NCBI GenBank assembly: GCA_009781425.1
Contig: WQYC01000024.1
Span: 1-40,587 of the forward strand
Reading direction: 5' to 3'
Length of the DNA: 40,587 bases
Source of the DNA: Oscillospiraceae bacterium
GTDB taxonomy: Bacteria; Bacillota; Clostridia; Oscillospirales; Ruminococcaceae
Shown here: one piece after another, positions 2 to 17,612 of the stretch
Position numbering within the stretch: the stretch's first letter is position 1
Layout: the number at the start of each line of letters is the position of its first letter
The notes under the pieces: model-generated
What the model was told of the DNA's origin: nothing
The model's database searches: none
Seen by the model: only the letters and a program-made list of their open reading frames with translations
Program-made: the position numbers and the translations under genes

Positions 2-493
2 ATCAACAACATGATTTGCAATCTGCCCGAGTGCGAATACGTCAACGGCTGTGAGGTCGAAACGATTGACATGGGGCGCGGCGCGGGGTTCATTTCAGTG
101 ACGCTCAAAGCGGAGCTGTTCTATCGCGTGCTCGGCGAAACTACAGGACTCACGCTCAAGGACGAGAGCGATTTAATGCCCTGCATGATTGAGCTGGCGC
201 AGATTAAAAAGAAATACGAGAAGGTCAAGAGCGCGCTGGAGGAAGTTCAGGCGACCGGCTACGGAATCGTCATGCCGAGCATAGACGAGCTCAGTCTTGA
301 CGAGCCGGAAATCGTTAAGCAGGGCGGGAAGTATGGGGTTAGGTTGAAGGCTGCGGCACCGTCGATACATAACGACGCAATCAATAGACAGTTAAGCTGT
401 AAGGTGAAATGTACCTTACAGCTTTTTAATTTACATCTTGCAATTTACTACAATATATGGTATAATCAGACAATTGGGGGCGATGTTGAATGA
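2..493 (+). CDS. spoIVA: SpoIVA, interrupted N-terminal portion (partial at left edge)
   Basis: SpoIVA is the ATPase that polymerises on the forespore surface and anchors the spore coat; it is made in the mother cell. The frame is open to the window edge, so the ATPase domain lies outside. What is seen matches the late-middle of the family: a GYGIVMPSIDELSLDEPEIV block, then GGKYGVRLKAAAPSIH ending at base 370. After that histidine, family similarity stops and 40 unrelated codons run to a stop at 493. The residues that should follow APSIH (MM-AANITTEVSPIVG) are at 17596 onward in the same frame. As it stands this gene makes a C-terminally truncated protein. Identification is from recall of the conserved SpoIVA C-terminal half; confidence is high because both halves fit together exactly. 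Confidence 0.93.
   Translation: MNNMICNLPECEYVNGCEVETIDMGRGAGFISVTLKAELFYRVLGETTGLTLKDESDLMPCMIELAQIKKKYEKVKSALEEVQATGYGIVMPSIDELSLDEPEIVKQGGKYGVRLKAAAPSIHNDAINRQLSCKVKCTLQLFNLHLAIYYNIWYNQTIGGDVE
349..391 (+). repeat. attL: left junction of the spoIVA-intervening element
   Basis: The junction lies in CATA at 368-371, which is repeated at 17593-17596. Just inside the element, 371-391 (AACGACGCAATCAATAGACA and one more base) matches the reverse complement of 17571-17591 at 15 of 21 positions, including ATCAATnGACA. Such inverted arms are expected of recombinase half-sites. The exact crossover dinucleotide is inferred (CA at 368-369), not observed. Confidence 0.75.
394..427 (+). terminator. Rho-independent terminator at left end of element
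   Basis: A perfect 12-bp stem, AAGCTGTAAGGT (394-405) with ACCTTACAGCTT (413-424), has a 7-nt loop and is followed by TTT. It lies 23 bases inside the element and should stop transcripts coming from the spoIVA promoter before the hsd operon. Confidence 0.85.
438..466 (+). promoter_or_regulatory. SigA-type promoter of the hsd operon
   Basis: TTGCAA (438-443), 17-bp spacer, TATAAT (461-466), 23 bp before the hsdS start at 490. It follows the terminator directly, so the restriction operon is transcribed independently of spoIVA. Confidence 0.75.
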
Positions 494-1608
494 GTAAATG
501 GGATATGGTCGCTTTTGATGAAGCAATCAATGATGTGACTAAGTTCGCAACAAAAATCAAGAAAGAAGATTACTTACCAAATGGGCAATATCAAATAATT
601 GACCAAGGGAAAGAATATCTCGCCGGTTATGCAAATAATTTAAAGGGATTATATGTTGATGTTCCTGTGATTGTTTTTGGCGACCACACAAGAATATTAA
701 AATACATTGATGAACCGTTGTTTATTGGAGCCGACGGCGTAAAGCTTTTAAAAACTAAAGGAAATAACTTAAACACAAAGTTTGTTTATTACTATTTAAC
801 GTCTTGTCGTGTAATTGATACAGGCTATAATCGGCATTTCAAATGGTTGAAAGAATTCAATATCCCTCTCCCTCCCCTCCCCACTCAACAAAAAATCGCT
901 GATGTCCTCGACCGTGCGAGTGCGCTAATTGAGAAACGCAGGTCGCATATTGCGAAGTTGGATTTGCTTGTGAAGTCGAGGTTTGTGGAGATGTTCGGCG
1001 ACCCTGTGAGGAATCCGATGGGGTGGGAGGTTAGGCAAATTAATAAATTTGCTACAGTTAGAATCGGTCCATTCGGAAGCTTGCTTCATGCAGAGGATTA
1101 CATTGAGGGTGGATTTCCTATTGTGAACCCGTCGCACATAATAGATAGTAAAATCGTTACAGATTCAAAACTAACATTAACTTCTGAAAAATATAACGAA
1201 TTAAGTGCTTATGCTTTGCGATGTGGAGATGTTGTACTTGGAAGACGAGGTGAAATCGGGCGGTGTGCAGTAATTGAAGATGACGACTACCTTTGTGGCA
1301 CGGGCAGTATGTTTATAAGAATAGAGCGCGATTACTTGCCAATGATACTTCAGCGTGTCATTTCATCTGATGCAATGCGTCGCGTTTTAGAGGATAAAGC
1401 CGTTGGAATTACTATGTTAAATCTTAATTCCAATATGATTTCAAATTTGAATGTGATTGTCCCGCCCCTCCACCTCCAAACCCAATTCGCCGACTTTGTT
1501 CGTGCGGTGGATAAGTCGAAGGCGGAAATGCAGGCGGGGTTGGAGCGGTTGGAGTTGTTGTATAGGTCGCTGATGCAAAAATGCTTTAATCAAGAAATTT
1601 TTAATTAA
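490..1608 (+). CDS. hsdS: Type I restriction-modification specificity subunit HsdS (first copy)
   Basis: HsdS gives the HsdM/HsdR complex its DNA target: two target-recognition domains (TRDs) separated by conserved helical spacers each read half of a bipartite site. Here TRD1 is about residues 1-125. The central conserved region (PLPTQQKIADVLDRASALIE, then the SRFVEMFGDPVRNPMGWEV block) spans about 130-185. TRD2 is about 186-325, followed by the C-terminal conserved region (QTQFADFVRAVDKSKAEMQ). The 372-residue length is normal for a two-TRD HsdS. The ATG at 490 follows a GGGGG stretch. A second hsdS follows hsdM, and the conserved spacers of the two genes are almost identical in DNA while their TRDs differ. 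Being first in the operon, before hsdM, is unusual but known in variable systems. Confidence 0.92.
   Translation: MSKWDMVAFDEAINDVTKFATKIKKEDYLPNGQYQIIDQGKEYLAGYANNLKGLYVDVPVIVFGDHTRILKYIDEPLFIGADGVKLLKTKGNNLNTKFVYYYLTSCRVIDTGYNRHFKWLKEFNIPLPPLPTQQKIADVLDRASALIEKRRSHIAKLDLLVKSRFVEMFGDPVRNPMGWEVRQINKFATVRIGPFGSLLHAEDYIEGGFPIVNPSHIIDSKIVTDSKLTLTSEKYNELSAYALRCGDVVLGRRGEIGRCAVIEDDDYLCGTGSMFIRIERDYLPMILQRVISSDAMRRVLEDKAVGITMLNLNSNMISNLNVIVPPLHLQTQFADFVRAVDKSKAEMQAGLERLELLYRSLMQKCFNQEIFN
880..1033 (+). repeat. Central hsdS repeat, copy 1
   Basis: This 154-bp stretch matches 3531-3684 with about six mismatches, in the same orientation. It encodes the conserved helical spacer between the two TRDs. 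A second shared stretch, 1477-1542, matches 4056-4121. Confidence 0.9.
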
Positions 1609-1621
1609 AGGGAGAAAAACA

Positions 1622-3082
1622 ATGATTGCAGGTGAACTTAAAAATAAAGTAGACAAGCTGTGGGAGATGTTCTGGACAGGCGGCGTTGTCAATCCGCTTG
1701 ATGTCATTGAACAGATTACATACCTTATGTTTATCCGCGACCTTGACGATATGGATAGAATCAAAGAGAAAGAGTGTAATATGCTTGACTTGACGCATAC
1801 GAGCATATTTCCCGCAGATAGTCGGCAATTCAGATGGTCAGTCTTTAAGGATTTACCCGCAGCTTCGATGTACGAGATTATTCAAAGCCGGGTGTTTCCT
1901 TTTATAAAGACGCTCCACGCCGATGAAAACAGCACGTATTCCAAGTACATGAGCGACGCGATTTTCAAGATTCCGACGCCGCAGTTGCTTGAGAAAATCG
2001 TAACCTCAATTGACGAGCTAAACGTCAAGGACAAGGATATGCGCGGGGATTTGTATGAATATCTGCTTTCCAAAATCGCCACAGCCGGCACTAACGGGCA
2101 GTTCCGCACACCTCGCCATATTATCCGAATGATGGTGGAAATGCTTGCGCTGACACCCGATGATATAATCTGCGACCCTGCCTGTGGAACGAGCGGTTTT
2201 TTGGTTAATGCCGCTGTTTATCTCAAAAATACATACGGCATCGACCTGCTGATGAACGAGAAAAATAAAGACCATTATAACAACGATATGTTCCACGGTT
2301 ACGATATGGACAGGACTATGCTGCGAATCGGTGCCATGAACATGATGACCCACGGAATCAAGAACCCTAACATTGAATACCGCGACAGTCTTTCCGACCT
2401 AAACACCGACACGGGGAAATTCACGAAAATCCTCGCTAATCCGCCGTTCAAAGGCAGTCTTGACGCTGATATAGTTTCGACCGACCTATTGAAAGTCACC
2501 AAGACTAAGAAAACCGAGCTTTTATTCCTTGCGTTGTTTCTGCGTATGCTGAGGGTCGGCGGACGCTGTGCTTCGATTGTACCTGACGGCGTGTTATTCG
2601 GCTCAAGCACGGCGCATAAAGCTATTCGCAAGGAAATCATTGAACGGCACAGGCTTGAAGCGATTATTTCCATGCCGTCAGGGGTGTTCAAGCCCTACGC
2701 CGGAGTATCGACTGCGGTGATTGTTTTTACAAAAACTAACCACGGCGGAACTGATAAGGTTTGGTTCTATGATATGCAGTCGGACGGGTTCAGTCTTGAC
2801 GACAAGCGTGTGTCAGTCGAGCAGAACGACATTCCCGATATAATCGCACGGTTTAAGAATCTCACAGCCGAGGCTGACCGTGAACGCACCGAGCAGAGTT
2901 TCCTTGTGCCGAAGTCCGAAATTGTGGATAACGGCTACGATTTGTCGATTAATAAATACAAGCGGAGCAATTATGTAGAGGAAGTTTACCCCATGCCGAG
3001 CGAGATTCTCGCCGAGATTAACGAGTTGGAAAGTGAGATTCAAGGCGGTTTGCGTGAGTTGGGGGCTATGTTGAATGGGTAA
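1622..3082 (+). CDS. hsdM: Type I DNA adenine-N6 methyltransferase subunit HsdM
   Basis: HsdM transfers a methyl group from S-adenosylmethionine to adenine N6 at sites chosen by HsdS, protecting the host DNA. The 486-residue protein has the HsdM helical N-terminal domain (about 1-140), then TPRHIIRMMVEML. The SAM-binding motif DPACGTSGFLVNAA is near residues 185-200 and the catalytic NPPF motif is in ILANPPFKGSL near 275. The C-terminal LxxEI coiled part contacts HsdS. GGGAG precedes the ATG. It overlaps the next hsdS by 8 bases, so the two are translationally coupled. All key motifs are intact. Confidence 0.95.
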   Translation: MIAGELKNKVDKLWEMFWTGGVVNPLDVIEQITYLMFIRDLDDMDRIKEKECNMLDLTHTSIFPADSRQFRWSVFKDLPAASMYEIIQSRVFPFIKTLHADENSTYSKYMSDAIFKIPTPQLLEKIVTSIDELNVKDKDMRGDLYEYLLSKIATAGTNGQFRTPRHIIRMMVEMLALTPDDIICDPACGTSGFLVNAAVYLKNTYGIDLLMNEKNKDHYNNDMFHGYDMDRTMLRIGAMNMMTHGIKNPNIEYRDSLSDLNTDTGKFTKILANPPFKGSLDADIVSTDLLKVTKTKKTELLFLALFLRMLRVGGRCASIVPDGVLFGSSTAHKAIRKEIIERHRLEAIISMPSGVFKPYAGVSTAVIVFTKTNHGGTDKVWFYDMQSDGFSLDDKRVSVEQNDIPDIIARFKNLTAEADRERTEQSFLVPKSEIVDNGYDLSINKYKRSNYVEEVYPMPSEILAEINELESEIQGGLRELGAMLNG

Positions 3083-4187
3083 GTGGGATATGGTGCGGTT
3101 GGGTGATGTATGTGAAATAAAATCCGGCGGTACACCTTCAAGAGCGGAAGGAAAATATTGGATACCCGGTGAAGGCGGCGCACCTGTTCCGTGGGTTAAA
3201 ATTTCTGACATGAAGCATAAATACGTTGCTGATACCGAAGAAAATATAACTACTACAGCTCTGCGTGAAACATCTGCGAAGCTTTTTCCGGCAGGAACAA
3301 TCCTATATACCATATTTGCTACGTTAGGGAGAGTTGCTGTTTTATCTATTGATGCGGCAACAAATCAAGCGATTGCAGGAATAATCGTTCCGCGTCAAAT
3401 AAATACAGATTTTTTGTATTATTATTTAATGTCAATAGAAAAACAAGTATTAGAAAGCGGGCGCGGGGTAGCACAAAATAATATTAATTTGTCAATTCTG
3501 CGAGAGTTTCAAATCCCCCTCCCACTTCTCCCCACTCAACAAAAAATCGCTGATGTCCTCAACCGTGCGAGTGCGCTCATCGAGAAACGCAAGTCGCAGA
3601 TTGCGAAGTTGGATTTGCTTGTGAAGTCGAGGTTTGTGGAGATGTTCGGTGACCCTGTGAGGAATCCGATGGGGTGGGAGGTTAAAGCGTGGAATGATGT
3701 TCTAAAAATCAAAAACGGCAAAGACCATAAGAAGGTTTCCTCGCAGGGCGGCAAATACCCGATAATCGGCAGCGGCGGTTGTATGGGTTATGCAAATGAA
3801 TATTTATGTGAAGCAAATTCTATTATAATCGGGCGGAAAGGAACAATAGATAAACCTTTTATTGTTCGCGAAAAATTTTGGAACGTGGACACAGCATTTG
3901 GACTTGAATCATATGCGCGCATATTAAATTTTGAATATCTCCTTTTGTTTTGCAAGTTTTTCGATTTTCAAAAACTAAATAAAACCGTAACAATACCAAG
4001 TCTCACCAAAAGCGATTTGCTAAAAATCCCTATCCCGCTCCCGCCTCTCAAGCTTCAAACCCAATTCGCTGACTTTGTTCGTGCGGTGGATAAATCGAAA
4101 GCGGAAATGCAGGCGGGGTTGAATAAAATTGAATTACTTTACAAGTCATTAATGCAAAAATGTTTTAGTGGGGAGATGTTCAAATGA
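3075..4187 (+). CDS. hsdS: Type I restriction-modification specificity subunit HsdS (second copy)
   Basis: This is a second two-TRD specificity subunit (370 residues). TRD1 (about 1-150, starting WDMVRLGDVCEIKSGGTPSR) differs from that of the first copy, as does TRD2 (about 205-330, ending TVTIPSLTKSDLLKIPIPLP). The central block SRFVEMFGDPVRNPMGWEV and the C-terminal block QTQFADFVRAVDKSKAEMQ are the same in both. The start overlaps the end of hsdM, and the stop overlaps the next gene by 4 bases. Because it directly follows hsdM, this copy may be the main partner; the first would give a second specificity. Confidence 0.92.
   Translation: MGKWDMVRLGDVCEIKSGGTPSRAEGKYWIPGEGGAPVPWVKISDMKHKYVADTEENITTTALRETSAKLFPAGTILYTIFATLGRVAVLSIDAATNQAIAGIIVPRQINTDFLYYYLMSIEKQVLESGRGVAQNNINLSILREFQIPLPLLPTQQKIADVLNRASALIEKRKSQIAKLDLLVKSRFVEMFGDPVRNPMGWEVKAWNDVLKIKNGKDHKKVSSQGGKYPIIGSGGCMGYANEYLCEANSIIIGRKGTIDKPFIVREKFWNVDTAFGLESYARILNFEYLLLFCKFFDFQKLNKTVTIPSLTKSDLLKIPIPLPPLKLQTQFADFVRAVDKSKAEMQAGLNKIELLYKSLMQKCFSGEMFK
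3531..3684 (+). repeat. Central hsdS repeat, copy 2
   Basis: Direct repeat of 880-1033, about 96 percent identical by eye, 2.65 kb apart with hsdM between. Recombination between copies would delete hsdM and fuse two hsdS halves; gene conversion could swap TRDs. Confidence 0.9.
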
Positions 4188-4828
4188 CAACACTATCCCG
4201 AAGTATAAATGATATTTATTTAGAAAAACTACTTACCTTGCAGTATGAAGCTTCAGATTTTATAACTCACAATTTAACTAAAGGTACACTTAGAGAAAAA
4301 TTCCTTATTCAAGTTATTGTGGGGGAATTTCCGAGACTTAAGGATTATTTGCAATCAGGTGTTGTCGAGCAAAAACGCGGCAATCATCGTCAGTTGGATA
4401 TGATATGGTTAAAACAAGAGGGTAGAGTAGGACAAACTTCATATTATGATTTACAAGATTGTGAATACATAACAGAAATTAAAAGCAAGGCAACTGCGTC
4501 TGAAATCAAAAAGCTTGAAGAATCAGCTGTATGTTATAAAGCCATTTGTCCGATTAAAGTCGGAATGTTTTGTTACGCTACAGAAGCAAATCAAAAAACA
4601 GTGTTAAAAAAATTTGGTTTTTTACATGACCGTGACATAGAAGCTTTTTCGGCTTATGACGAAAGCAAAGATATATGCAAAAATATTGATTTTTTCTTTA
4701 GCTTAGATATCAACGCTGAGGATTCAAGACCGTATTTTGTAATGAGAGATTCATTAGGTAAAAACTCGTTATTTTTGAACAGTCCGGTAATCACGCATTA
4801 TTTGAATTTATTTAGACAATGCGAATAA
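4184..4828 (+). CDS. Predicted PD-(D/E)XK-like nuclease-fold protein (DUF6602-like) in hsd operon
   Basis: This 214-residue protein lies between hsdS and hsdR and overlaps hsdS by 4 bases, so it belongs to the operon. It has no signal peptide or membrane segment. Near residues 25-65 it reads HNLTKGTLREKFL...SGVVEQKRGNHRQLDMIW, followed near 95 by YITEIKSKAT. An acidic residue in QLD followed by E-x-K in EIKSK is the spacing of a PD-(D/E)XK nuclease core, and GTLREKFL resembles the DUF6602 family, which is common in accessory restriction or defence loci. The family assignment is from memory and moderate. It may cleave DNA or merely bind nucleic acid; no catalysis is proven. Confidence 0.5.
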   Translation: MTTLSRSINDIYLEKLLTLQYEASDFITHNLTKGTLREKFLIQVIVGEFPRLKDYLQSGVVEQKRGNHRQLDMIWLKQEGRVGQTSYYDLQDCEYITEIKSKATASEIKKLEESAVCYKAICPIKVGMFCYATEANQKTVLKKFGFLHDRDIEAFSAYDESKDICKNIDFFFSLDINAEDSRPYFVMRDSLGKNSLFLNSPVITHYLNLFRQCE

Positions 4829-4844
4829 TGAGAGGAGCAAACCC

Positions 4845-7800
4845 ATGACCAACTTCAACTTCTTAAAATCCGACCCGCAGTTTGCGTCATTCGCCGATGC
4901 TGCGATTGCCGCCGAGCGGACATATAACGTTTATCCCGTGCTGTCGGTACTGGGGTGCCGTCAGGCTATGGAAACCGCCGTCAAATGGATGTACAGCGCG
5001 GATAACAGCTTAAAAATGCCGTATGAGGATAAGTTAGTTTCGCTTTTGAACACCACGGCTTTCAAGGAAATTGTGGACAAGGATTTATATAACCGGCTTG
5101 AATATATTCGCAGAATCGGCAACGAAGCCGCGCACAATCCGAAATATATAACCAAGGATAAGGCGAAGCTGGCGCTTAAAAATCTGCATATATTCATGGA
5201 TTTCATCGCTTATTGCTATGGTGCGGAATATACTGAAGCTAAGTTTAATGAAGCTATTTTAGACATAGAATACCGCGCTGAAATCCCTGCGGCAACAATA
5301 GAAACGCCAACGATGGAATATTTAGCAAAAGCAAATTCTTCTTTCAAGGGTGTGTTCACCGAGCGCCGCGCGGCTCAGCAGCCTGCCTATACTCCGAAGC
5401 CCATCGACTTCACCGAAGCCGCCACCCGCAAGGCATATATTGATGTAATGCTGTCCGATGCCGGTTGGGTCGAGGGTGAAAACTGGCTGAATGAATATCA
5501 AATCGACGAGATGCCGAACCAATCGGGGGTTGGCTTCGCCGATTATGTGCTACTCGGTGATGACGGTCGTCCGCTGGCTGTGGTTGAAGCAAAGAAAGCC
5601 TCTGTTGATGTATCTGCGGGGCGTCAGCAGGCAAAGCTATATGCTGATTTTTTAGAGAAGAAATTCGGTCGGCGTCCTGTTATATTTCTGACTAACGGCT
5701 TTGAAACCCGTATTATCTGTGGGAAATACTCTGAACGTAAGGTTTCCGGGGTTTTCGGAAAGCGCGACCTTGAAAAAGAGTTTAATATTATGTCAATGCG
5801 GACAAAGCTCGATAATATCCGCATAAATGACGCGATTACCAACCGCTATTATCAGAAAGAAGCAATCAAGGCAATCTGTGAAGCTTTTAGTGCCAAGAGC
5901 CGCCGTAAGGTGCTTTTGGTAATGGCGACAGGCAGCGGCAAAACCCGCACAGTTATTTCGCTCGCTGATGTGTTGATTCAAAACGGCTGGGTTAAGAATC
6001 TGCTGTTCTTAGCTGACCGTAACAGTCTTGTCACTCAGGCAAAGCGCGCCTTCGCGAATCTGCTCCCAGACCTCTCTATTACGAATTTAGTTGAGGATAA
6101 GTCAAACGCAGGAGCGAGAGCTGTTTTCTCTACCTATCAGACCATGATGGGTTGTATTGACGATACAAGGGACGAGGACGGCAAAAAGCTGTTCACGCCC
6201 GGGCATTTCGATTTGATTGTCGTTGACGAAGCGCACCGCTCGATTTACAATAAATACAAGGACATTTTTACTTATTTTGACGCGCTGCTTGTAGGCTTGA
6301 CCGCCACGCCTAAAGACGAAATTGACAAAAACACATACGGCATTTTTGAATTGGAGGCGGGTGTCCCCACGTATGGCTATGAACTGGCGCAGGCAGTTGA
6401 GGACGGTTATCTTGTAAGCTTCAGCACTATTGAAACCAAGTTAAAATTCATGCACGACGGCATTGTTTACGACGAATTGTCTGATGAAGACAAAGAAATG
6501 TATGAGGAACTGTTTGCCGATGAAGACGGCGAAATTCCGACGGCTATTGATTCAAGCGCGCTGAACGAATGGATTTTCAACAAAGATACAATTCGGCAGG
6601 CGTTGAATACGTTAATGCGAGACGGCTTGAAAGTAGATTACGGCAACAAAATCGGCAAAACTATAATATTTGCGAAAAGCCATCTCCACGCCGAAAAAAT
6701 CCTTGAGGTCTGGAACGAACAATATTCTCATTACGCGAGCGGCTTCTGCGCTGTAATTGATAATTATATAAATTACGCACAAAGTATAATTGATGATTTT
6801 TCCGATAAATCAAAACTGCCGCAAATTGCGATTTCTGTCGATATGTTAGATACAGGCATAGACATACCGGAAATCTTGAACCTTGTATTTTTCAAGAAAG
6901 TAATGAGCAAGGCGAAATTCTGGCAGATGATTGGACGCGGAACAAGGCTCTGCGAAGGTCTTCTTGATGGGGAGAATAAAAAAGAATTTTACATCTTTGA
7001 TTTCTGCTCAAACTTTGAATTTTTTAGGGTAACAAATGGTAAAGGCAAGGACGCAATGCCGGTTGTGAGCTTGTCGGAGCGGCTATTTAACTTGAAAACC
7101 GAGTTAATTTATAAGCTGCAGGATTTAGTGTATCAAACAGACGAGCTGATTGCTTTTAGAGCTGGATTGATTGATGAACTCGCGCAAAAAATTACTACCC
7201 TAAACCGTGACAACTTCGCGGTAAGACAGCATCTGCGTTATGTAGATACATATTCAAATAAAGACAATTTCAAGGTTTTGACATACGAAAACACATTGCA
7301 GATAGCAGAGCATCTTGCGCCGTTCATTGCACCGGATAGCGATGAAATAAGCGCGGTTCGTTTTGACGCGCTGATGTATCAATTAGAATTGTTACTTGTC
7401 CTGGGCAAATCAAGCACCCGCGCTAAAAACGACCTCTTGAAAAAAACAAGTGCGTTAACAAATTACGGCACAATTCCCGAAGTAAAGGAGCAATCGGAGT
7501 TTATTAACACCCTGCTTAATACCGATTATATTGAGCGTGCGGGAATACCGGAGCTTGAGCATATTCGCATGAATCTGCGTAATCTTATTAAATACATTGA
7601 ATGGGAACCGCAGGCAAGATATGACACTGACTTTTCCGATTCTATTATCAGCACTGCTCACAATCCATCTGATTTAAAAAATGACGACCTTGTTAATTAC
7701 AGGAAAAAGGTCGATTATTACATACGCACTAACGAGAATAACCCTGCAATAATGAAGCTAAAGACCAATATACCGCCGACAGGTGATGATATTAAGCGGC

Positions 7801-8153: not shown

Positions 8154-8224
8154 TAATATAAAAAGATGAGCAACCATAAGACATTCGCATGACGTTAATT
8201 TTTGTTCTGCTCTAAGTTTTGCCC

Positions 8225-8279
8225 TTGACATTCAGTGTAGAAAATGTTATAATGTCATTAAACAAGGTAATACTATGAC
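8225..8279 (+). promoter_or_regulatory. Consensus promoter and possible operator of the abiE pair
   Basis: TTGACA (8225-8230), 17-bp spacer, TATAAT (8248-8253): a perfect consensus. It is followed by an inverted repeat GTCAT (8254-8258) / ATGAC (8275-8279). AbiEi antitoxins are known to repress their own promoters through inverted repeats, so this may be the operator (inference). A strong GGAGGTGA ribosome site follows at 8283. Confidence 0.75.
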
Positions 8280-8296
8280 CGTGGAGGTGACTTAAA

Positions 8297-10693: not shown

Positions 10694-13249
10694 AAAGCGA
10701 AGAAACCGCTCTATCTTTTCGCGTTCCCCGCTTCCGTTAGTAGGAAATCGAAATAAAGGAATTTTATAGCGCTCTAAAATACAGTCTTTCATTTTATCTC
10801 TCTCATGTTGTTTTGTTCCCGGTTTATGATAATTAAACCCATCTACTTCAATAGCTAAAACAGGCTTTTTATTGATTGTGTTATAAATCAAAAAATCTAA
10901 ATGGGTAGCCGGATTCATAATGTATTGGCGTTCTTCATCATTCATTGGAATTGTATCTTTGATAAGCAAACCCAGCGCTTGACGGCAAATAACATTAAGA
11001 GGCAAATTAGAATGAGCTTTTAATATATCGACTATTTCACCGTACATTAAATTTTCCGAATTATAAGTAGAAATTTTCAAGTGCTTTTTAAGAAAAGCAA
11101 TTCTTGAATCGGTGTATTGACGATATAATAAATCAAAAACAGAACGAATTTCACTTTGAACGACACTAAAATTATTATACTCAATATATGAAATCAAATC
11201 GCCGATATTACTATCAACAGGTTGCTCATTAGCGGATACTACAAGACACAATCGCTTTTTTGCGCGTGACACCGCTACATTTAAGAGATATGGGTCATCA
11301 GAAAAATCAGTAACAACATCATCAACTGTTGACAGTAAAATATCATCTTTTTCGCGCCCTTGATACTTATGTACAGTTGCAACTTCAATTACATTCTCAC
11401 CTAATTGTTGTGAAATCGCATCAACTTGTTTATTATAAGGTGCTATAATCCCAACAGATTCCGGATTTGTGTCATTAAACATTGGCAGTGCTTCGTTAAT
11501 GATAACATCTATTTGTCGTTGATTAATATTTTGGCGTTGATGGTTACCCACAACTGTTTTATAAACTGCAAGTGCATCCGGTTCGCCGTGGTCTTGTGTC
11601 ATAATAATCAACTCGTTATTATAGAATTTTTGATTGCAAAACCCGATTATTTTCGGGTGGCAGCGATAATGTTCCCTTAATAAAGTCTGAGGTACATCTT
11701 TAAGGATTTCACATATAGACTTTAAAAAGCTGTTTTCGGTGAAGGAATATCCTTGGTGTAACTCATAAGAATCAAAAATTTCAGAGTAACATTTTTTCAT
11801 ATTTTCCGTTATCACGTTGGGGAGTTGTTTTAAATCTCCGACAATAACCGCATTTCGAGAACAAGAAATAGCAAGAGCCCCGGTAGATATGTCTACTTGT
11901 GATGCTTCATCCATGATAAGATAATCATACGTCACACCTCTCAAGCTACTGCAAGAAGAAAATGTGGTGCTTAAAACGATGGGATACTCTTGCAGAATAT
12001 TACCCGGGGTTTTCCGTAAATCTTCTTCCGTGAACTGCGTTCGTTTTGTTTTATTACCGTAACGTTCAAAAAGCTTTGCTCGCAAAAGCTTCATAGACAG
12101 TTCGGTTAGTTCTTTTTGTTTTTCTTTAACACGAGCAGTTTCAAGGTAGTTTTCCAATCTGGATATTTCTTTAATTAATTCATTGTTTCTTGATTGATAG
12201 AAATCATTTTGTAACGATGTGATAATCTTAGATAAGTTATTTTTATAGAAACCCCAATCGAAGATATAGTAGATTAAAACGTTCTTTATTTTAAACCACA
12301 GTGAAATTACGCGCTCTTTTTCCGAGATTGTATTACATTCCTGCCATAAATGCATGATTTTTTCAGAGCTTAAATGATTGAGTGGTTTTATTGCTGCATT
12401 TAATAAACCGGATTCATTGCAATACTGCTCAAAGTATTTAATTTCCAATCTTAATGAATCCAACTCCGTACGTATTTGTGCCAAGCTCTCCTGTGCAATA
12501 AATGCTTTTGAAAGTTCTTCAATATGATTTTGGATTTCAGTTTTTAAATCTGATTGTTGATATGAATCTATTTCCCATTCAAACATTTCGGGGAAAACCC
12601 CTGTTTGACTTTCAACAAACTTCTTTTTGTTGTCTGAGTTACCCAACGCAGCCACAAGAAAATCCATGTTATATTTTAAATCAGATAACTTCTCTGCAAC
12701 ATTTAATGTTGCAGAGTTATTATTAGATACAATCTGTATGGTTTTGTTTGCCAGCAACAGATTAGCGATAATATTCAATATAGTTTGAGTTTTACCGGTT
12801 CCCGGCGGACCTTGAATAACGCTTACTTGATTTGATAAGGCATTCTTTACTGCTTTAAATTGGCTTGCATTCCCACCGAATGGAAATATTAAACTATCAA
12901 CAGAATTCGTCTTTATTATATATTTTTTCGGATTTAAATAAACAGCCATTACTGTATCTTCGCTAATAAACCCAAGCTTCTCGTATTGCTTTTTAAGCAA
13001 AGGTTCTCCTTCATCATTTTTAAGTTCATTAACGGCTGCCAGTCGTTGAAGATAATCCATGCAGTTTTGTGAAGTTCTTTCTATGAGTGGTTTTTTTATC
13101 CACTCGATGGAATTATAATTATAGGAATATGTTTTTCCGTTTTGAAAAGTAATATCATATTTTTTCGTTGAACTGTTATATTTACAATGCTTTACATCGT
13201 CAGTTATATCTTTACTGTTGGCAAAGATTAAATTTTTGCTTTTATCCAT
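10688..13249 (-). CDS. SF1 (UPF1/Dna2-type) helicase with C-terminal DUF2726/VSR-like nuclease domain
   Basis: This 853-residue protein likely unwinds nucleic acid and cuts it. The Walker A IQGPPGTGKTQTIL is near residue 148. A long helical insert runs about 230-400. The motif II DEASQVD is near 447, REHYRCHP near 525, and the SF1 C-terminal motif LLNVAVSRAKKRL near 660. The C-terminal part, PVLAIEVDGFNYHKPG followed by ERDKMKDCI (about 795-820), has the E-x-D and R-D-x-x-K pattern of the DUF2726/DUF559 VSR-like nucleases. AAAAGGA precedes the ATG. It has its own promoter. Such fusions are frequent in defence islands; the specific system was not identified. Confidence 0.85.
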   Translation of the reverse strand: MDKSKNLIFANSKDITDDVKHCKYNSSTKKYDITFQNGKTYSYNYNSIEWIKKPLIERTSQNCMDYLQRLAAVNELKNDEGEPLLKKQYEKLGFISEDTVMAVYLNPKKYIIKTNSVDSLIFPFGGNASQFKAVKNALSNQVSVIQGPPGTGKTQTILNIIANLLLANKTIQIVSNNNSATLNVAEKLSDLKYNMDFLVAALGNSDNKKKFVESQTGVFPEMFEWEIDSYQQSDLKTEIQNHIEELSKAFIAQESLAQIRTELDSLRLEIKYFEQYCNESGLLNAAIKPLNHLSSEKIMHLWQECNTISEKERVISLWFKIKNVLIYYIFDWGFYKNNLSKIITSLQNDFYQSRNNELIKEISRLENYLETARVKEKQKELTELSMKLLRAKLFERYGNKTKRTQFTEEDLRKTPGNILQEYPIVLSTTFSSCSSLRGVTYDYLIMDEASQVDISTGALAISCSRNAVIVGDLKQLPNVITENMKKCYSEIFDSYELHQGYSFTENSFLKSICEILKDVPQTLLREHYRCHPKIIGFCNQKFYNNELIIMTQDHGEPDALAVYKTVVGNHQRQNINQRQIDVIINEALPMFNDTNPESVGIIAPYNKQVDAISQQLGENVIEVATVHKYQGREKDDILLSTVDDVVTDFSDDPYLLNVAVSRAKKRLCLVVSANEQPVDSNIGDLISYIEYNNFSVVQSEIRSVFDLLYRQYTDSRIAFLKKHLKISTYNSENLMYGEIVDILKAHSNLPLNVICRQALGLLIKDTIPMNDEERQYIMNPATHLDFLIYNTINKKPVLAIEVDGFNYHKPGTKQHERDKMKDCILERYKIPLFRFPTNGSGEREKIERFLRFL

Positions 13250-13294
13250 AGAAATATCCTTTTGTTATAATTATCTTGTGACGAACCTTGTATC

Positions 13295-13323
13295 ATTTTA
13301 CCATATTCCATAAAAGCTGTCAA
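13295..13323 (-). promoter_or_regulatory. SigA-type promoter of the helicase-nuclease gene
   Basis: On the minus strand: TTGACA (13323-13318), 17-bp spacer, TAAAAT (13300-13295), about 45 bp upstream of the ATG at 13249. The gene is therefore transcribed separately from the recombinase gene upstream. Confidence 0.75.
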
Positions 13324-13361
13324 GAAAAACCATAAAAACCTCAATTTTCATTTCATGGAGT

Positions 13362-15146
13362 TTAAGAGGTAGTAAGCCGACGTTTTGTCTTATAATCCCA
13401 ACCTTTTCTTCCGTCTTTCGCATAACCACGCTTAATACAATGTCTGTCTTTTGATAGCTTCTTTCCACAAAAGTCTGAACAAAGGACAGTATCTAAATCG
13501 CCCTCTTTTTGAACCTCGGTTACGACCGAGGTTTTTCCTTTTTTACGAAGAATATTGTAATCCGAGAAGTCATCGAGAACCCGCAAAAACACTTTCAAAT
13601 TCACGATATTTCTGTTTTCGGTTTTGTGAACTTCAATCTTTTCGAGCAGACTTTCAACCATGCCGTCGCTGATAATTTCATCGAAACTAAGCTCGTTGGA
13701 AATTATAGAACGGAGAGCTTCGACGCTGTTCATAAAGTCATTATTTTGCTCGTTTTGTCTTTTGTATTCGTCTATCCTCTCTTTTAATTCTTGAATATTA
13801 TTATTGAATTTTTCGTTGCGTTCTTCAAATTCATTATCGCTGACCTTGCCTTTTAGATTCAAATCGAGGAGCTTGTCCTTCATTTTGAGAACATTGTTTA
13901 TTTCTACTTGTGTTTTCGCAATATCGTCTGTGAGGGAGGACTTTGTGTGAATTTCGGTGTACATTTTTATCATCTCGTGAATTAGCTTCGCTTTGTCAGT
14001 AATGATGGCGTTCATCAGACGGCGCATGATTTCGTCAAGCTCGTCCGTATAAATAGTAGGACTGTTGCAAATTTTTTTACCACCCTCGACATAACGCTTG
14101 CAACGCCATACTTCCTTTGAATGACTATCGTACTTGAACTCGGCTCTGTGATACGAAGCATTATGCTCCATACAGATGATTTTTCCGCTGTATGCGTATT
14201 TATTCTGATAGCTTGTCTTGTTTTCGCAAGACATAGCTTCACTGCGTTTATTTAGGATTCTGTTCGCCTTATCCCAAACTTCCTCGCTGATAATCGGCGG
14301 GACGTTTTCGTGGTCTTTGTACATAACCCATTCGGTACTGTCGATGGCGATTCTGTCATTACGGCGGTAATCTACCTTGTGGGTCTTATTTCCACAGTAG
14401 TAGCCTTTGTATTTTGGATTTTGGATTATATGCTTTAATGTGCTGAAAGCGAACGGGTTCCCGTCACGGTTGAGGAAACCTTCCTCCGCTAAGGTCTTGG
14501 ATATTGTTCGTATTCCACGCTTGCTATTGACGTATAAATCGAAAACACGGCGAATCATAGCGGCTTCTTCTTCTAAAATAACAAGTTTACCATTGTCTTT
14601 AATGTAACCATATATGCTGTTACTGCCGAGAACAACGCCGTTTTCTATCGCACGCTGAAAGCCGAAACGAGTGCGCTCGGAAAGCCTGCGTACTTCGTCC
14701 TGTGCCAAGCTCGACATGATGGTAAGGCGAAGCTCGCTGTCTGCATGGAGTGTATTGATGTTGTCCGATTGGAACAGTACACCCACACCTGCGACAAGTA
14801 AATCTTGCGTATATTTGATACTGTCGAGCGTGTTACGGCTGAAACGACTGATTTCCTTTGTGATGACAAAATCAAATTTGCCGAGCTTTGCGTCGTCTAT
14901 CATTTTTAAGAACGATTCGCGTTTCTTAACGCTTGTCCCGCTCAATCCCTCGTCGATGTAACCCTCGACATAAGTCCATGCAGAGGTGTTTTTTATGAAG
15001 TCGCTGTAATATTTAACTTGTGCGGACAGGGAGTGTAACTGCTCGTCCTTGTCGGTGCTGACACGGGCGTAGTAAGTCACCCGCATGGGTATGTCGTAGA
15101 TGTTTTTGCCGGAGTTGAGTTGGTTGCGTATAGCATATAAATCCAT
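13362..15146 (-). CDS. Large serine recombinase (candidate excisionase of the spoIVA element)
   Basis: Large serine recombinases cut and rejoin attachment sites through a serine-DNA link. The N-terminal resolvase domain has YYARVSTDKDEQLHSL with catalytic Ser30, then GYIDEGLSGTSVKKRESF and ITKEISRFSRN. The Recombinase domain follows (GIRTISKTLAEEGFLNRDG, about 215-240). A zinc ribbon reads ICMEHNASYH...WRCKRYVEGGKKICNSP, where the usual second cysteine of the first pair is a histidine. A coiled coil (about 410-480) precedes a basic tail. I chose ATG 15146 because AAGAGG lies 8 bases upstream; the longer frame would start inside the promoter. At 594 residues it is the size of skin and ICE recombinases. 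It is the only recombinase in the element, so it is the likely agent of excision. Confidence 0.93.
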   Translation of the reverse strand: MDLYAIRNQLNSGKNIYDIPMRVTYYARVSTDKDEQLHSLSAQVKYYSDFIKNTSAWTYVEGYIDEGLSGTSVKKRESFLKMIDDAKLGKFDFVITKEISRFSRNTLDSIKYTQDLLVAGVGVLFQSDNINTLHADSELRLTIMSSLAQDEVRRLSERTRFGFQRAIENGVVLGSNSIYGYIKDNGKLVILEEEAAMIRRVFDLYVNSKRGIRTISKTLAEEGFLNRDGNPFAFSTLKHIIQNPKYKGYYCGNKTHKVDYRRNDRIAIDSTEWVMYKDHENVPPIISEEVWDKANRILNKRSEAMSCENKTSYQNKYAYSGKIICMEHNASYHRAEFKYDSHSKEVWRCKRYVEGGKKICNSPTIYTDELDEIMRRLMNAIITDKAKLIHEMIKMYTEIHTKSSLTDDIAKTQVEINNVLKMKDKLLDLNLKGKVSDNEFEERNEKFNNNIQELKERIDEYKRQNEQNNDFMNSVEALRSIISNELSFDEIISDGMVESLLEKIEVHKTENRNIVNLKVFLRVLDDFSDYNILRKKGKTSVVTEVQKEGDLDTVLCSDFCGKKLSKDRHCIKRGYAKDGRKGWDYKTKRRLTTS

Positions 15147-15154
15147 AATTTTAA

Positions 15155-15213
15155 CCTCTTGATTAATTGTCCTTTGGTTAAATATAACACGCAAAGGACA
15201 GAAAGTCAAGAGG
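15155..15213 (-). promoter_or_regulatory. Recombinase promoter embedded in a symmetric 59-bp double inverted repeat
   Basis: Minus-strand promoter: TTGACT (15209-15204), 17-bp spacer, TATATT (15186-15181). Around it is a nested dyad: outer arms CCTCTTGA / TCAAGAGG (8 bp, perfect) and inner arms TGTCCTTTG / CAAAGGACA (9 bp, perfect), each pair separated by 5 bp, with a 15-bp centre holding the -10 box. The outer arms also overlap the -35 and the ribosome site. A protein bound here would block transcription. The likely binder is the adjacent regulator or the recombinase itself (inference). Confidence 0.75.
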
Positions 15214-15234
15214 TTTTGCTACAAATTTTGTTTT

Positions 15235-16524
15235 TTACAGAATCACCCAATGCCCGGTTTTCTTTGAGCCTTCACGCCGAATTAAATTCGCTTCTTGATA
15301 CTCTTTTAATTCGCGCGAAATAGTGCTTTGCGACTTGCCTGTAACCTCGGCAAGTTCGGGAATTGTTGCGGCGGGATTTTCTTTTATTACGTCAAAAGTT
15401 GATTTTATCTTATCGTTTATCTTGTCATTTATCTTGTCATTTGACATGATAAGTTCCTTTTCAAATTGGAATGTAATTACGGTAAAACTTGGTGTGAGTT
15501 CAAAAATTGAACGGTCGTAGACTTTGAGAATACGGTTCATGCCTGAACCGATTTGCTCGACTAAGTCCATATCTCGAAAAACTCGCATAAGTTCACGATT
15601 GCGTGGCATTGAACGGCATTTGAAGAAATCTTCTTCTGTAAGTCCATCAACTAATCCTCCGCAGGAGGTAACAACGATTCTGTCGGTGTATATTTCGACG
15701 AGAGGAAAGCCTTTTGTGTAGTCGTTATGCACGATTGCGTTGATTACGACTTCTTTTAGAGCGATAGAGTTGACACGCTCTTTTTCGATGCGATTCTTCG
15801 ATGTAATTTTCGTATATGTGCGATTCTCTGAATCTAAGCGGTCAAGTATGCGTTGAGTTGCTGTTATTAGACAGCGATTGCCATATTCACGGGTTTCGAG
15901 TAAATCAACCTTGTCTGTTCCGGCGTATACTGCGATTTTGATTGAATTATTATTTTCATCAGCGAGAAGATATGCTGCATAATTATAATCGCCATTATGT
16001 TGCTTTAAGTCCAAACTCTCTAAAAACTGCTCGGTTGGCTCGATATTCTTTTCCTCGTAATAAATGCGCAGTTGCTTGAATGTGAGGTTTGCTCGTGGGG
16101 AGGGTGTAGTTTGAAGCGTTACTTGTCGGCGTGTTGAAATCATATCTTCTATCATTTGTTCGCTCATTGGTTGTGACGAACTCCCGACACGGATGAAACA
16201 GCCCTGCTCGGTCATGCCGAGCTGACGAATATAATACGGACGCTGCTGACCGCATGACACAATCACCCGAATTATATCTTTGCCGTCAAGGGTGTCTTGA
16301 ACGACATCAAATAGTCCGAGCGTCTGCGGTCTGATATTGTTACGGATACGGTCAACGATTTTTAACTGCTCGCCATCGGGATTATCAACACCAAAGGTAC
16401 TGCCGTCGTCGTTTATGCCGATTATTATTTCGCCACCGCCCGGATAATTGAGGAATGAAACAACCGACCGCTCGAAACGGTCGCTAAGCTCGCGCTTTAA
16501 TTCTGTACGATTATTTTCCTGCAT
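15235..16524 (-). CDS. AlbA_2 / HATPase-type ATP-binding transcriptional regulator
   Basis: The 429-residue protein starts with an AlbA_2 (Schlafen AAA_4-type) domain: ELSDRFERSVVSFLNYPGGG and EIIIGINDDGSTFGVDN (about 8-50). An ATPase-like region follows (ALKEVVINAIVHNDY near 262, then VVTSCGGLVDGLTEEDFF and QIGSGMNRIL). The C-terminus is a winged helix-turn-helix (AATIPELAEVTGKSQSTISR, about 385-405). A linker of NDKI repeats comes from three 12-bp DNA repeats at 15404-15439. It lies directly upstream of the recombinase gene on the same strand with 88 bp between, and its own promoter resembles the recombinase promoter. Controlling excision is a reasonable inference; related proteins occur in many contexts. 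Confidence 0.85.
   Translation of the reverse strand: MQENNRTELKRELSDRFERSVVSFLNYPGGGEIIIGINDDGSTFGVDNPDGEQLKIVDRIRNNIRPQTLGLFDVVQDTLDGKDIIRVIVSCGQQRPYYIRQLGMTEQGCFIRVGSSSQPMSEQMIEDMISTRRQVTLQTTPSPRANLTFKQLRIYYEEKNIEPTEQFLESLDLKQHNGDYNYAAYLLADENNNSIKIAVYAGTDKVDLLETREYGNRCLITATQRILDRLDSENRTYTKITSKNRIEKERVNSIALKEVVINAIVHNDYTKGFPLVEIYTDRIVVTSCGGLVDGLTEEDFFKCRSMPRNRELMRVFRDMDLVEQIGSGMNRILKVYDRSIFELTPSFTVITFQFEKELIMSNDKINDKINDKIKSTFDVIKENPAATIPELAEVTGKSQSTISRELKEYQEANLIRREGSKKTGHWVIL
15404..15439 (-). repeat. Three tandem 12-bp repeats encoding NDKI linker
   Basis: Three head-to-tail copies of TTTATCTTGTCA (the first with two changes) encode the NDKI-NDKI-NDKI linker before the winged helix of the regulator. 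Repeat-number change would alter the linker by four residues without a frameshift. Confidence 0.8.
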
Positions 16525-16557
16525 TTTAAAACTCCTATTTATACTGCCTTTTGTTTA

Positions 16558-16590
16558 AGTATACCAAAACAACGATGATTTTTCAAGAGG
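16558..16590 (-). promoter_or_regulatory. Promoter of the AlbA_2-type regulator, with recombinase-like operator
   Basis: Minus strand: TTGAAA (16586-16581), 17-bp spacer, TATACT (16563-16558). CCTCTTGA overlaps the -35 exactly as in the recombinase promoter, and CAAAAGGCA occurs at the same distance (starting 37 bases after the first C) as CAAAGGACA does there. The box also forms the last codons of the upstream 43-residue gene. Confidence 0.65.
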
Positions 16591-16714
16591 TAAGGACACG
16601 ATTTTTGAATTCCGAGTACATTTCCTCAGTAATATGCCCTTTTTCGTATAATCGTTGATTAATGTGTAACATTATCTCGATTTCTACTTCTCTCATTTTT
16701 TCTGCATTAACCAA
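16583..16714 (-). CDS. Small 43-residue protein, SHOCT-like helical motif
   Basis: A TTG start at 16714 lies 8 bases after GGAGG; an in-frame GTG at 16723 is too close to it. The protein reads about MREVEIEIMLHINQRLYEKG then HITEEMYSEFKNRVLTS. The 'LYEKGHITEEMYSEFK' pattern resembles the SHOCT-type helices of small proteins often found beside recombinases in Clostridia. It is the first gene of the minus-strand recombination module (small protein, regulator, recombinase). A regulatory or directionality-factor role is possible but speculative. Confidence 0.6.
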   Translation of the reverse strand: MVNAEKMREVEIEIMLHINQRLYEKGHITEEMYSEFKNRVLTS

Positions 16715-16739
16715 CGCTTTCACCTCCATGTTTTATTGT

Positions 16740-17241
16740 TTAATTGTATTATTGTAGTGCGGTTATTATAACCTGCGAGGATTGTAAGTTTCTGTGATAT
16801 TGTAGACAGGGTCATTATTTAGTGTCGGGGTACTTACTTTAACGCCTCCCGATTCGCCCGGGCGATACACGATTACCGTAGTGCAGCGGGTTATTTGATT
16901 TAATTGTAACATATTTTAAGTCACAAGGAGTGCCATCTTTTTTTGAGGTTTATTGTGCATATTGCCGAATAAAGTGTTTCAAATAAAAAAACGCCCCTTG
17001 CGGAGCGGCGTAGCCATTACTGCGGATACTCTTTTCTTGTCAGAAAGTTTCGTTAATTATTTCACCGTGGTTTTCAATAATATATCATTTGAAAAATTTT
17101 TAACTCTATCCCCTTTTGTTCAAGGGGGACACCGAAAAAAACACTAATATTCCCGGTTTTTCGGCAAAACACAATCTCTCGGCGTTACTCTTTCGAAATT
17201 CGGGGGGATTTTGTTTCATTTTAGGTTGTTTTCTTCATATT
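16740..17241. other. About 500-bp non-coding stretch near right end of element
   Basis: No convincing gene is present. It contains a perfect 12-bp palindrome TCGCCCGGGCGA (16854-16865), a TATAAT-like box on the minus strand (about 16778-16773) that may serve the 43-residue gene, the minus-strand terminator at 16985-17010, and an A/T-rich part with small hairpins (CCCCTT/AAGGGG near 17111-17130; CCGAAAAA/TTTTTCGG near 17132-17164). Confidence 0.5.
16985..17010 (-). terminator. Minus-strand terminator
   Basis: The stem CGCCGCTCC... with AAGGGGCG, read on the minus strand (17010 to 16992), is followed by seven T. It would end transcripts from the phosphatase remnant or anything entering from the right end. 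Confidence 0.6.
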
Positions 17242-17562
17242 TTAACTTTTAACTATAAATTTTTTCTTTAACATTTTAATTTCATATTTAGTGATGCCAC
17301 ATAAAACTAAATATTTTTCAAGCCCATCGTAATTTGTTTCGAGGTATTTGAACAAAAATAAAATGTTTTTTTCATTACATTCATAAGCATAAGAAGGTAA
17401 TTCTTCTTGGTTAATTTTGGCAATATTTTCTATATGGCTTTTCGTTAACAAATAGTCAAATAATATATCATGCAGTTGCACTCCTATAATACTTAAAAGA
17501 AATGCAGAAAGTCTTATAATCTCGTGCATACTTATTGCATTTGCGAGAACTTCCTCGGACAA
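17242..17562 (-). pseudogene. C-terminal remnant of a protein tyrosine phosphatase (Y_phosphatase3-like)
   Basis: The frame reads FLLSIIGVQLHDILFDYLLTKS, then YLETNYDGLEKYLVLCGITK and a lysine-rich end. This matches the tail of bacterial Y_phosphatase3 proteins: an LLS-LLGV helix after the catalytic loop, an I--DYLLT stretch, then YLE...YG--E-YL---G. The catalytic loop (HC-x5-R) and everything before it are missing. A stop lies just upstream in frame, and the element border is only about 30 bases beyond. It may start at ATG 17529 if expressed. Probably gene debris cut off at the element end; family call from recall. Confidence 0.5.
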
Positions 17563-17570
17563 AATCTACA

Positions 17571-17612
17571 TTGTCGATTGATACGGACGTTCCATATGAT
17601 GGCTGCCAACAT
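17571..17612 (+). repeat. attR: right junction of the spoIVA-intervening element
   Basis: CATA at 17593-17596 repeats 368-371. Bases 17571-17591 are the inverted partner of 371-391 (15 of 21 match). In the excised circle these arms would be symmetric around C-CA-T, which puts CA at the centre. In the restored gene, GGCA (355-358) and TGCC (17603-17606) lie symmetrically around the same CA. Confidence 0.75.

What the first reader, a model, noticed from the sequence alone, without database searches (positions are those of the whole stretch)
370..17593. spoIVA split by a 17.2-kb skin-like element; gene restored in frame by precise excision
The front of SpoIVA ends at APSIH (base 370) and its last 91 residues resume at 17596, in the frame defined by the repeated CATA. 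Joining gives APSIH-MMAANITTEVSPIVG, the normal family sequence, with no lost or extra codon. A large serine recombinase lies between. Known precedents are skin in sigK and similar elements in other sporulation genes; I do not recall with confidence one in spoIVA. If excision happens only in the mother cell, this is a programmed DNA rearrangement controlling coat-basement assembly.
Basis: partly seen in the sequence, partly recalled or inferred. Interest (0 to 1): 0.95.

Follow-up and report, generated by a model that had tools for sequence, protein, structure and literature searches.

The report
Mobile DNA cassettes splitting spore gene spoIVA
A gene needed to build the spore coat is cut in two by a piece of mobile DNA that carries its own cutting enzyme, and the same cut at the same codon recurs in many related bacteria, so the gene is probably stitched back together only while a spore is being made.

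Summary
spoIVA is broken at codon 403 (CA at 368-369) and resumes at 17593; the insert is 17,225 bp. Joining restores a 494-codon frame. No second SpoIVA match was found in the genome; a close relative (G190) has the empty site.

It is not a lone case. Of 80 loci with related recombinases, 32 have spoIVA broken here (both halves on nine loci), nine loci being from named isolates; two unnamed single-contig genomes show it too. The att sites share one design: inverted arms ACTTCTGTTTG/CAAACAGAAGT, 12 nt either side of CA. A separate recombinase branch goes with sigK, the classical skin site. Most elements carry a small conserved protein, my candidate directionality factor, with a sporulation-type CATA box upstream in 28 of 31 spoIVA loci. 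Separated halves look under purifying selection.

The window element looks composite: a 13.1-kb restriction/AbiE cassette without recombinase beside a 4.1-kb recombinase cassette, with an attP-like site between.

Best reading: a new, recurrent spoIVA class of sporulation gene-intervening elements, probably excised in the mother cell on the C. difficile skin plan. Excision was not observed; sigG and sigK are also broken in this genome, so loss of sporulation is not excluded.

The parts
2..370 (+). spoIVA front part on this contig (middle domain); the first part of the gene is on contig C3
   Evidence: PF20438 157.5 bits; C3/C24 overlap of 123 bp
356..392 (+). attL: spoIVA side, crossover CA at 368-369, element arm CAATAGACAGT (382-392, read on minus as ACTGTCTATTG)
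368..13465 (.). inferred cassette B, about 13.1 kb, no recombinase found: restriction-modification and AbiE cargo
490..1608 (+). HsdS-like type I specificity subunit
   Evidence: PF01420
1622..3082 (+). HsdM type I methylase
   Evidence: PF02384, PF12161
3075..4187 (+). second HsdS-like subunit (shares repeats with the first)
   Evidence: PF01420; repeats D1, D2
4184..4828 (+). DUF6602-like protein, just under the Pfam cut-off
   Evidence: 26.2 of 27 bits
4845..8153 (+). HsdR type I restriction subunit
   Evidence: PF04851, PF08463
8297..8929 (+). AbiEi-like antitoxin by neighbourhood (DUF6088, just under cut-off)
   Evidence: 24.4 of 25 bits
8907..9845 (+). AbiEii nucleotidyltransferase toxin
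   Evidence: PF08843
9842..10693 (+). DUF1848 protein
   Evidence: PF08902
10688..13249 (-). superfamily 1 helicase with DUF2726 end
   Evidence: PF13086, PF13087, PF10881
13443..13490 (-). inner attP-like site: arms TCTGTCTTTTG and ACTGTCCTTTG (9/11 alike), 12-nt spacers, CA at 13466-13467; at the recombinase 3' end
13466..17592 (.). inferred cassette A, about 4.1 kb, with the recombinase
13362..15146 (-). large serine recombinase; conserved ATG at 15146
   Evidence: PF00239, PF07508, PF13408; start
15150..15215 (-). recombinase promoter region by eye: TTGACT and TATATT with arm-like CTGTCCTTTG / CAAAGGACAA
   Evidence: inverted repeat I6
15235..16524 (-). Schlafen/AlbA_2 domain regulator
   Evidence: PF04326
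16583..16729 (-). conserved small protein, 48 aa: candidate recombination directionality factor
   Evidence: E 2.1e-19, iterated profile; alignment A2; no Pfam family
16743..16773 (-). weak sigma-E-like promoter GGTTATA-16-AATACAAT before the small protein
   Evidence: the -10 is AATACAAT, not CATA
17242..17562 (-). tyrosine-phosphatase-like fragment (matches only the C-part of Y_phosphatase3)
   Evidence: PF13350 145-239 of 240
17570..17606 (+). attR: element arm ATTGTCGATTG (17570-17580), CA at 17593-17594, spoIVA side
17596..17871 (+). spoIVA back part, last 91 codons and stop
   Evidence: PF20439 130.7 bits

Best explanation
A sporulation gene-intervening element, probably two cassettes in tandem, sits in spoIVA at codon 403. 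Shown: the split, the in-frame joint, the att-site design, a recombinase branch tied to this site, recurrence at the same codon, low pN/pS in both halves of interrupted genes. Inferred: the recombinase is made from a sigma-A promoter and damped by binding arm copies there; the small conserved protein is the directionality factor, switched on in the mother cell by sigma-E or sigma-K; attL x attR recombination then removes the circle and rebuilds spoIVA in the mother cell, while the forespore keeps the element. This is the plan shown for C. difficile skin (PMC5025042).
For: spoIVA broken here in 32 of 80 loci and in two single-contig genomes. One att design: symmetric arms with 12-nt spacers, and CA at the centre in 11 of 11 attL rows and 25 of 27 attR rows, two rows being out of register and two loci skipped by the script; in attL rows the CA also follows from the conserved His codon. 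Recombinases of this site fall in one supported branch, sigK ones in another. Of 31 genomes, 28 show a 94-144 aa SpoIVA_C frame and no intact copy (27 with no other match, one with an extra scrap). No stops in 12 front and 30 back tblastn segments; ten chosen back-half pairs have pN/pS 0 to 0.14, e.g. 8 nonsynonymous against 42 synonymous differences. Small protein in 31 of 34 distinct spoIVA-group loci, with CATA within 60 nt in 28 of 31, 7.7 expected. Arm-like sequence upstream of 19 of 33 recombinases, 0.7 expected. SASP and SigE genes present.
Against: No excision, circle or junction read was seen. No directionality activity was tested; the small protein is named from conservation, place and promoter only. 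The window's own copy has AATACAAT rather than CATA. The sigma-E profile was recalled, the shuffles keep only base content, close relatives are not independent, and one CATA (L054) lies in attL itself. A stricter promoter pattern found 5 of 35, 1.1 expected, no more than the highest shuffle. Six of the 38 recombinases in the spoIVA branch have no spoIVA found beside them. Window arms score low against the family matrix. sigG is split here and only the N-half of sigK is found: sigG acts in the forespore, which does not suit mother-cell-only excision. Insertion in the window lineage may be recent, so selection evidence comes mainly from other genomes; dS is saturated in several pairs and four of five front pairs (0.24-0.34) exceed the intact median of 0.20.
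Confidence: 0.72

Rival explanations
1. Loss of sporulation: mobile islands settle harmlessly in genes that are no longer used, and spoIVA stays dead.
For: In this genome sigG is split between contigs C5 and C57, and sigK is a truncated N-half with no C-half found; 17 PF07508 recombinase matches in one genome.
Against: spoIVA halves carry no stops and show low pN/pS in other interrupted genomes; the target codon and in-frame joint are constant; CATA boxes before the small protein; by reading, the sigG halves would also rejoin in frame between 9-bp inverted arms.
Confidence: 0.16
2. A mobile defence island that excises at random or on stress (sigma-A driven recombinase) and uses spoIVA only as a conserved landing site; rejoining is not timed to development.
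For: Sigma-A-like promoters before recombinases, by eye; defence cargo in the window; tandem occupancy; empty sites in sister species.
Against: CATA boxes before the small protein in 28 of 31 loci against 7.7 expected, before recombinases in 12 of 30 against 6.1 (highest shuffle 14); a sister recombinase branch goes with sigK, another mother-cell gene.
Confidence: 0.1
3. Assembly or binning artefact.
For: The contig starts inside spoIVA and many relatives are draft genomes.
Against: Both halves plus recombinase lie on single-contig genomes of 4.07 and 4.61 Mb; named isolates show it too; att arms fit.
Confidence: 0.02

Closest known systems
skin element of Clostridioides difficile (sigK; CD1231 recombinase, CD1234 RDF; PMC5025042, abstract and passages seen)
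   Same: Large serine recombinase with a sigma-A-type promoter inside a split sporulation gene; a small separate protein with a mother-cell-type promoter in the proposed RDF role; in-frame joint.
   Different: Target is spoIVA codon 403, not sigK; separate recombinase branch and arm motif; composite and tandem cassettes; excision not shown here.
gin element of Bacillus cereus ATCC10987 (gerE; PMC5595907, passages seen)
   Same: Non-phage gene-intervening element with serine recombinase and an extra factor (GirX).
   Different: Different gene and host class; gin has three recombinases; rearrangement was shown experimentally there.
yin (yabG, C. botulinum; PMC10747680, passages seen), which also names vfbin (spoVFB) and SP-beta (spsM)
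   Same: Sporulation genes split by recombinase-bearing elements.
   Different: Described as prophage-like; other genes; yin was reported from one strain only, whereas this class recurs in many Clostridia genomes.
SCC cassettes of staphylococci (recalled)
   Same: Serine recombinase, one fixed genic site, tandem cassettes with att-like junctions, restriction cargo, cassettes lacking a recombinase.
   Different: Ccr models hit far under their cut-offs (127.4 of 900 bits); target is spoIVA; SCC insertion leaves its target gene working (recalled).

Membership tests
Sporulation gene-intervening elements (skin-type) | Sits inside the coding sequence of a sporulation gene | tested here: met
Sporulation gene-intervening elements (skin-type) | attL/attR share a core and joining restores the frame | tested here: met
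Sporulation gene-intervening elements (skin-type) | Encodes its own site-specific recombinase | tested here: met
   relatives tied to the site
Sporulation gene-intervening elements (skin-type) | Recombinase or RDF under sporulation-specific control | tested here: inconclusive
   CATA box before the candidate RDF in 28 of 31 loci, window copy imperfect; stricter pattern not significant
Sporulation gene-intervening elements (skin-type) | Excised during sporulation, rebuilding a working gene | not testable with these tools
   no reads or cultures available
skin proper | Inserted in sigK | tested here: not met
   sigK-associated recombinases form another branch
Prophage-like element | Phage structural genes | tested here: not met
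   none among 12 element proteins scanned with Pfam nor the small protein; PHROGs not scanned
SCC (staphylococcal cassette chromosome) | CcrA/B/C recombinase | tested here: not met
   best 127.4 bits against a cut-off of 900
SCC (staphylococcal cassette chromosome) | Insertion in rlmH | tested here: not met
   target is spoIVA

The most novel reading that the evidence does not exclude
In this genus several developmental genes (spoIVA, sigK, sigG) are each split by different recombinase elements and all have to be rejoined to make a spore; in some Clostridia spoIVA itself holds two different elements at adjacent sites about 30 bp apart, so two excisions must both occur. A split sigG, a forespore gene, would need rejoining in the cell that becomes the spore, so its element would have to leave and re-enter the inherited chromosome at each cycle.
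Probability: 0.3. Interest if true: 0.92.

Novelty: new variant of a known kind. Interest (0 to 1): 0.82.

Why it matters
SpoIVA is the ATPase that anchors the coat to the forespore surface and is widely conserved in spore formers (general knowledge). A recombinase lineage that breaks it at one codon in many Clostridia, isolates and single-contig genomes included, would make programmed gene assembly a common part of clostridial sporulation instead of a few curiosities. It also means that genome surveys that score spoIVA as missing or truncated may misjudge which bacteria can sporulate (inference), and it offers a ready test set: a fixed attB, a defined arm motif, a small candidate RDF and cultured hosts.

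Tried and rejected
Sigma-E promoter before the recombinase: 0 of 33 by pattern; the promoters look sigma-A-like with an arm-like operator. Matrix test of arms in the window: outer arms score about zero (-0.1, -0.7); the best window dyad (11.2) lies outside the element at 21584, and the inner dyad ranks second at 2.4, inside the range of simulated sequence (mean maximum 6.6). The inner site rests instead on arm symmetry at the spacing fixed by other loci: 14 dyads of 9/11 or better in 40,539 positions, one with CA, at the recombinase end. L068's recombinase also lies away from attR, but no family-type dyad was found there. A short frame in G027 looked like an insertion but is a frameshift; G350 likewise. 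G190 and G214 short frames are contig ends; G009 and G007 read as contig ends from coordinates only. Flank translation with stops as X for sigK gave nothing useful; a plain ORF gave SigK. Viral contigs: 80 loci kept of 102; tblastn found no spoIVA in them, and the one close recombinase (L129) ends its contig. The small protein has no Pfam match. R. papyrosolvens spore papers: two listed, both on other subjects by title.
Full report
1. The observation. The front of SpoIVA runs to codon 403 (CAT) and the last 91 codons resume at 17596, both sides sharing CATA; with the crossover pair CA at 368-369 and 17593-17594 the insert is 17,225 bp. The halves are Pfam SpoIVA_middle and SpoIVA_C. The window is the whole of contig C24 and begins inside spoIVA; the ATPase part lies at the end of contig C3, and the two contigs overlap by exactly 123 bp. 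Joined, they give one frame of 494 codons. One SpoIVA_C and one ATPase match were found in the genome.

2. Sister genomes. Of 71 genomes of the genus, 54 have a SpoIVA_C match; the window's is the only broken copy without an intact one among them (G190 and G214 frames are cut by contig ends; G198 is a contig-edge piece by its coordinates). In a family sample 128 of 148 have it; of three further short frames one is a frameshift (G027) and two read as contig ends. G190 is contiguous through the site, 595 of 668 aligned columns identical to the joined window flanks.

3. Not a lone case. A search of species genomes with an alignment of 17 recombinases (A1) found 396 relatives and kept the best 80 loci. 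A spoIVA part broken here was found in 31 of the 80 by tblastn: both halves in 9, front only in 2, back only in 20; one more (L062) came from reading its recombinase flank. Nine are named isolates: R. sufflavum DSM 19573, R. papyrosolvens C7, Pseudoflavonifractor capillosus An827, Flavonifractor An306, An92 and An10, Marasmitruncus massiliensis, Anaerovorax IOR16, Papillibacter cinnamivorans. Of the 31 genomes searched whole, 30 have SpoIVA_C: 28 show a 94-144 aa frame (27 with no other match, one with an 86-aa scrap), and two (L059, L072) have SpoIVA_C in frame with a second recombinase; one of these (G175) also has a second, nearly full, frameshifted spoIVA. In a class sample 219 of 293 genomes have SpoIVA_C; the tool cut the list of rows, and the listed rows held eight short frames away from contig ends, the window and two of the isolates above (by identical coordinates) included, plus G522, whose contig ends at codon 403. 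Two of the eight, in single-contig genomes of 4.07 and 4.61 Mb, hold both halves, a 61% identical recombinase and the small protein; G261 and G510 have the back half beside recombinases of about 47% identity, not placed in the tree.

4. att sites. attL has spoIVA, then CA, 12 nt and CAAACAGAAGT; attR has ACTTCTGTTTG, 12 nt, CA and spoIVA. CA stands at the centre in 11 of 11 attL rows and 25 of 27 attR rows; the other two rows (L052, L100) are out of register and show the motif in the printed sequence, and L059 and L072 were skipped by the script. In attL rows CA also follows from the conserved His codon; it is the arm symmetry that marks it as centre. The exact arm occurs in 5 of 11 attL and 16 of 27 attR rows, the rest being variants. 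In most loci the recombinase 3' end runs into attR; in L039 and L044 it lies antisense at attL.

5. Recombinase tree. In a quick tree of 83 rows (one support measure; the tool warned of long branches) 32 spoIVA-site recombinases and six with no spoIVA found lie in one branch (98), and 40 sigK ones with two unresolved in another (100). One row labelled spoIVA in the other half is L072's second recombinase, mislabelled by my script; its first is not in the tree. Of the 48 loci without a spoIVA break, 38 show sigK sequence by search and two more (L093, L114) by reading; one flank is SigK by NCBIfam; eight stay unresolved.

6. Two sites in one gene. In L059 and L072 (re-fetched as L214, L215) a first element at codon 403 is followed by about 30 bp of spoIVA, then a second element whose recombinase, from another clade, is fused in frame to the rest of SpoIVA_C. 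L062 looks the same. Two excisions would be needed there.

7. The window element is probably composite. In most relatives the recombinase gene ends at the att site; here it ends 13 kb from attL. P0001, a recombinase 98% identical over 94% of the query, from a metagenome contig, has a tail that reads as antisense spoIVA front, so that element sits in spoIVA without the 13 kb. At the window's recombinase end is an attP-like dyad, arms TCTGTCTTTTG and ACTGTCCTTTG, 12-nt spacers, CA centre. The outer arms (ACTGTCTATTG, ATTGTCGATTG) have the same form and spacing, though a matrix from the other loci scores the window's sites low. L072 holds one tandem dyad of the family type, the only one among 36 entries scanned. 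I infer cassette B (368-13465; restriction-modification, AbiE, helicase; no recombinase) beside cassette A (13466-17592; recombinase, Schlafen-like regulator, small protein). How B entered is not known.

8. Control. Upstream of many recombinases are sigma-A-like promoters by eye; 19 of 33 have an arm-like sequence (9/11 or better) within 90 nt, 0.7 expected by shuffling; the window scored 8/11 there but has its own arm twice over its promoter. A small protein, 43-65 aa in most loci, was found with an iterated profile in 31 of 34 distinct spoIVA-group loci (not in L058, L073, L209) and in 46 of 48 others (its printed 33 counts two re-fetched loci). A CATA box lies within 60 nt of its start in 28 of 31 spoIVA loci (7.7 expected, maximum 14 of 500 shuffles) and in 43 of 48 others (9.9 expected; two of the 48 are re-fetched spoIVA loci), against 12 of 30 before recombinases (6.1 expected, maximum 14). 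Close relatives are not independent, and in L054 the box lies in attL. A stricter pattern on 35 upstream stretches found 5 against 1.1 expected, equal to the largest shuffle. The best window match is GGTTATA-16-AATACAAT, without the C. Passages of PMC3789822 state that sigma-E and sigma-K share very similar -10 boxes, with ATA or AC at -35. In C. difficile skin the recombinase is sigma-A driven and the RDF depends on sigma-E and SpoIIID (PMC5025042, abstract and passages).

9. Selection. None of 12 front or 30 back tblastn segments has a stop. In ten back-half pairs that I chose between interrupted genomes, the back half, cut off from promoter and start codon, shows pN/pS 0 to 0.14: L040-L041 8 nonsynonymous and 42 synonymous, L050-L051 0 and 15, L053-L057 4 and 30. 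Five front pairs give 0.08 to 0.34; medians for nine intact relatives are 0.20 front, 0.10 back; synonymous change is saturated in several pairs. This fits rejoining and does not fit free decay. It does not date the window's own insertion.

10. Against a simple story. In this genome sigG is split: an N-half on C5, recognised by reading, ends ...STYAVP beside a 463-aa recombinase; the C-half on C57 matches SigG (186.5 bits, under the full-length cut-off); the sites have 9-bp arms TTTCCACTA/TAGTGGAAA. sigK is an N-half beside another recombinase; no C-half was found. SigE passes its cut-off and a SASP gene is present. In four relatives with short sigG C-half frames, three have a recombinase about 51% identical to the C5 one nearby; neither the N-half nor the C5 arms were found in those stretches, and one of the four (G231) also has a full-length copy. 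Of 12 genomes, the window's own included, 7 have two full-length SigE/SigK-like matches, and G190 has sigK in two pieces. These may be more programmed splits, or sporulation being lost.

11. In print. Searches for spoIVA with skin element, intervening element, serine recombinase or prophage terms and one for intervening elements in Clostridia listed no paper whose title or shown abstract reports an element in spoIVA; passages read in two hits mention spoIVA only as a sigma-E target or a CRISPR target. Other listed papers that hold the word were not opened for it. The library holds open-licence papers only and no preprints. The sigG search listed five papers, none about a split sigG by title or shown abstract.

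Noticed in passing
own genome C5:18176-19927 and C57:694-1197 (L241, L242): sigG, a forespore sigma factor gene, is split between two contigs with perfect 9-bp inverted arms and an adjacent 463-aa serine recombinase; short C-half frames recur in four other genomes of the genus.
   Followed up: partly
own genome C3:100396-102355 (L221): sigK N-half beside another serine recombinase; no C-half found in the assembly.
   Followed up: partly
L209 (G182:C40): Same-genus genome with an intact spoIVA followed about 5.4 kb later by an attR-like site and a second copy of the last 94 codons; AbiE-like genes between by eye (the window's AbiE gave no tblastn match), no recombinase match: a possible way out of dependence on excision.
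   Followed up: partly
own genome C38:18500-24500 (L244): A 520-aa recombinase abuts an ORF with peptidoglycan-binding domains (SpoIID-like by eye only): another possible split gene.
   Followed up: partly
own genome: 17 PF07508 large serine recombinase matches (two of them in one frame) in one 2.5-Mb genome.
   Followed up: partly
L061, L066, L069, L070, L086: A Defluviitaleaceae clade of sister recombinases whose target gene I did not identify.
   Followed up: no
L260 (G522:C33): Contig ends exactly at spoIVA codon 403, as an assembly branch at the att site might give.
   Followed up: no
L129 (IMGVR_UViG_3300014643_000020): A 124-kb viral contig ends 15 bp after a 58% identical recombinase match; no spoIVA beside it.
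   Followed up: partly
L213 (G162): A second scrap of SpoIVA_C about 14 kb downstream of the broken gene in Marasmitruncus massiliensis.
   Followed up: no
window 36669-40262: Three neighbouring genes that look like hydrogenase maturation genes hydE, hydG and hydF (by eye).
   Followed up: no
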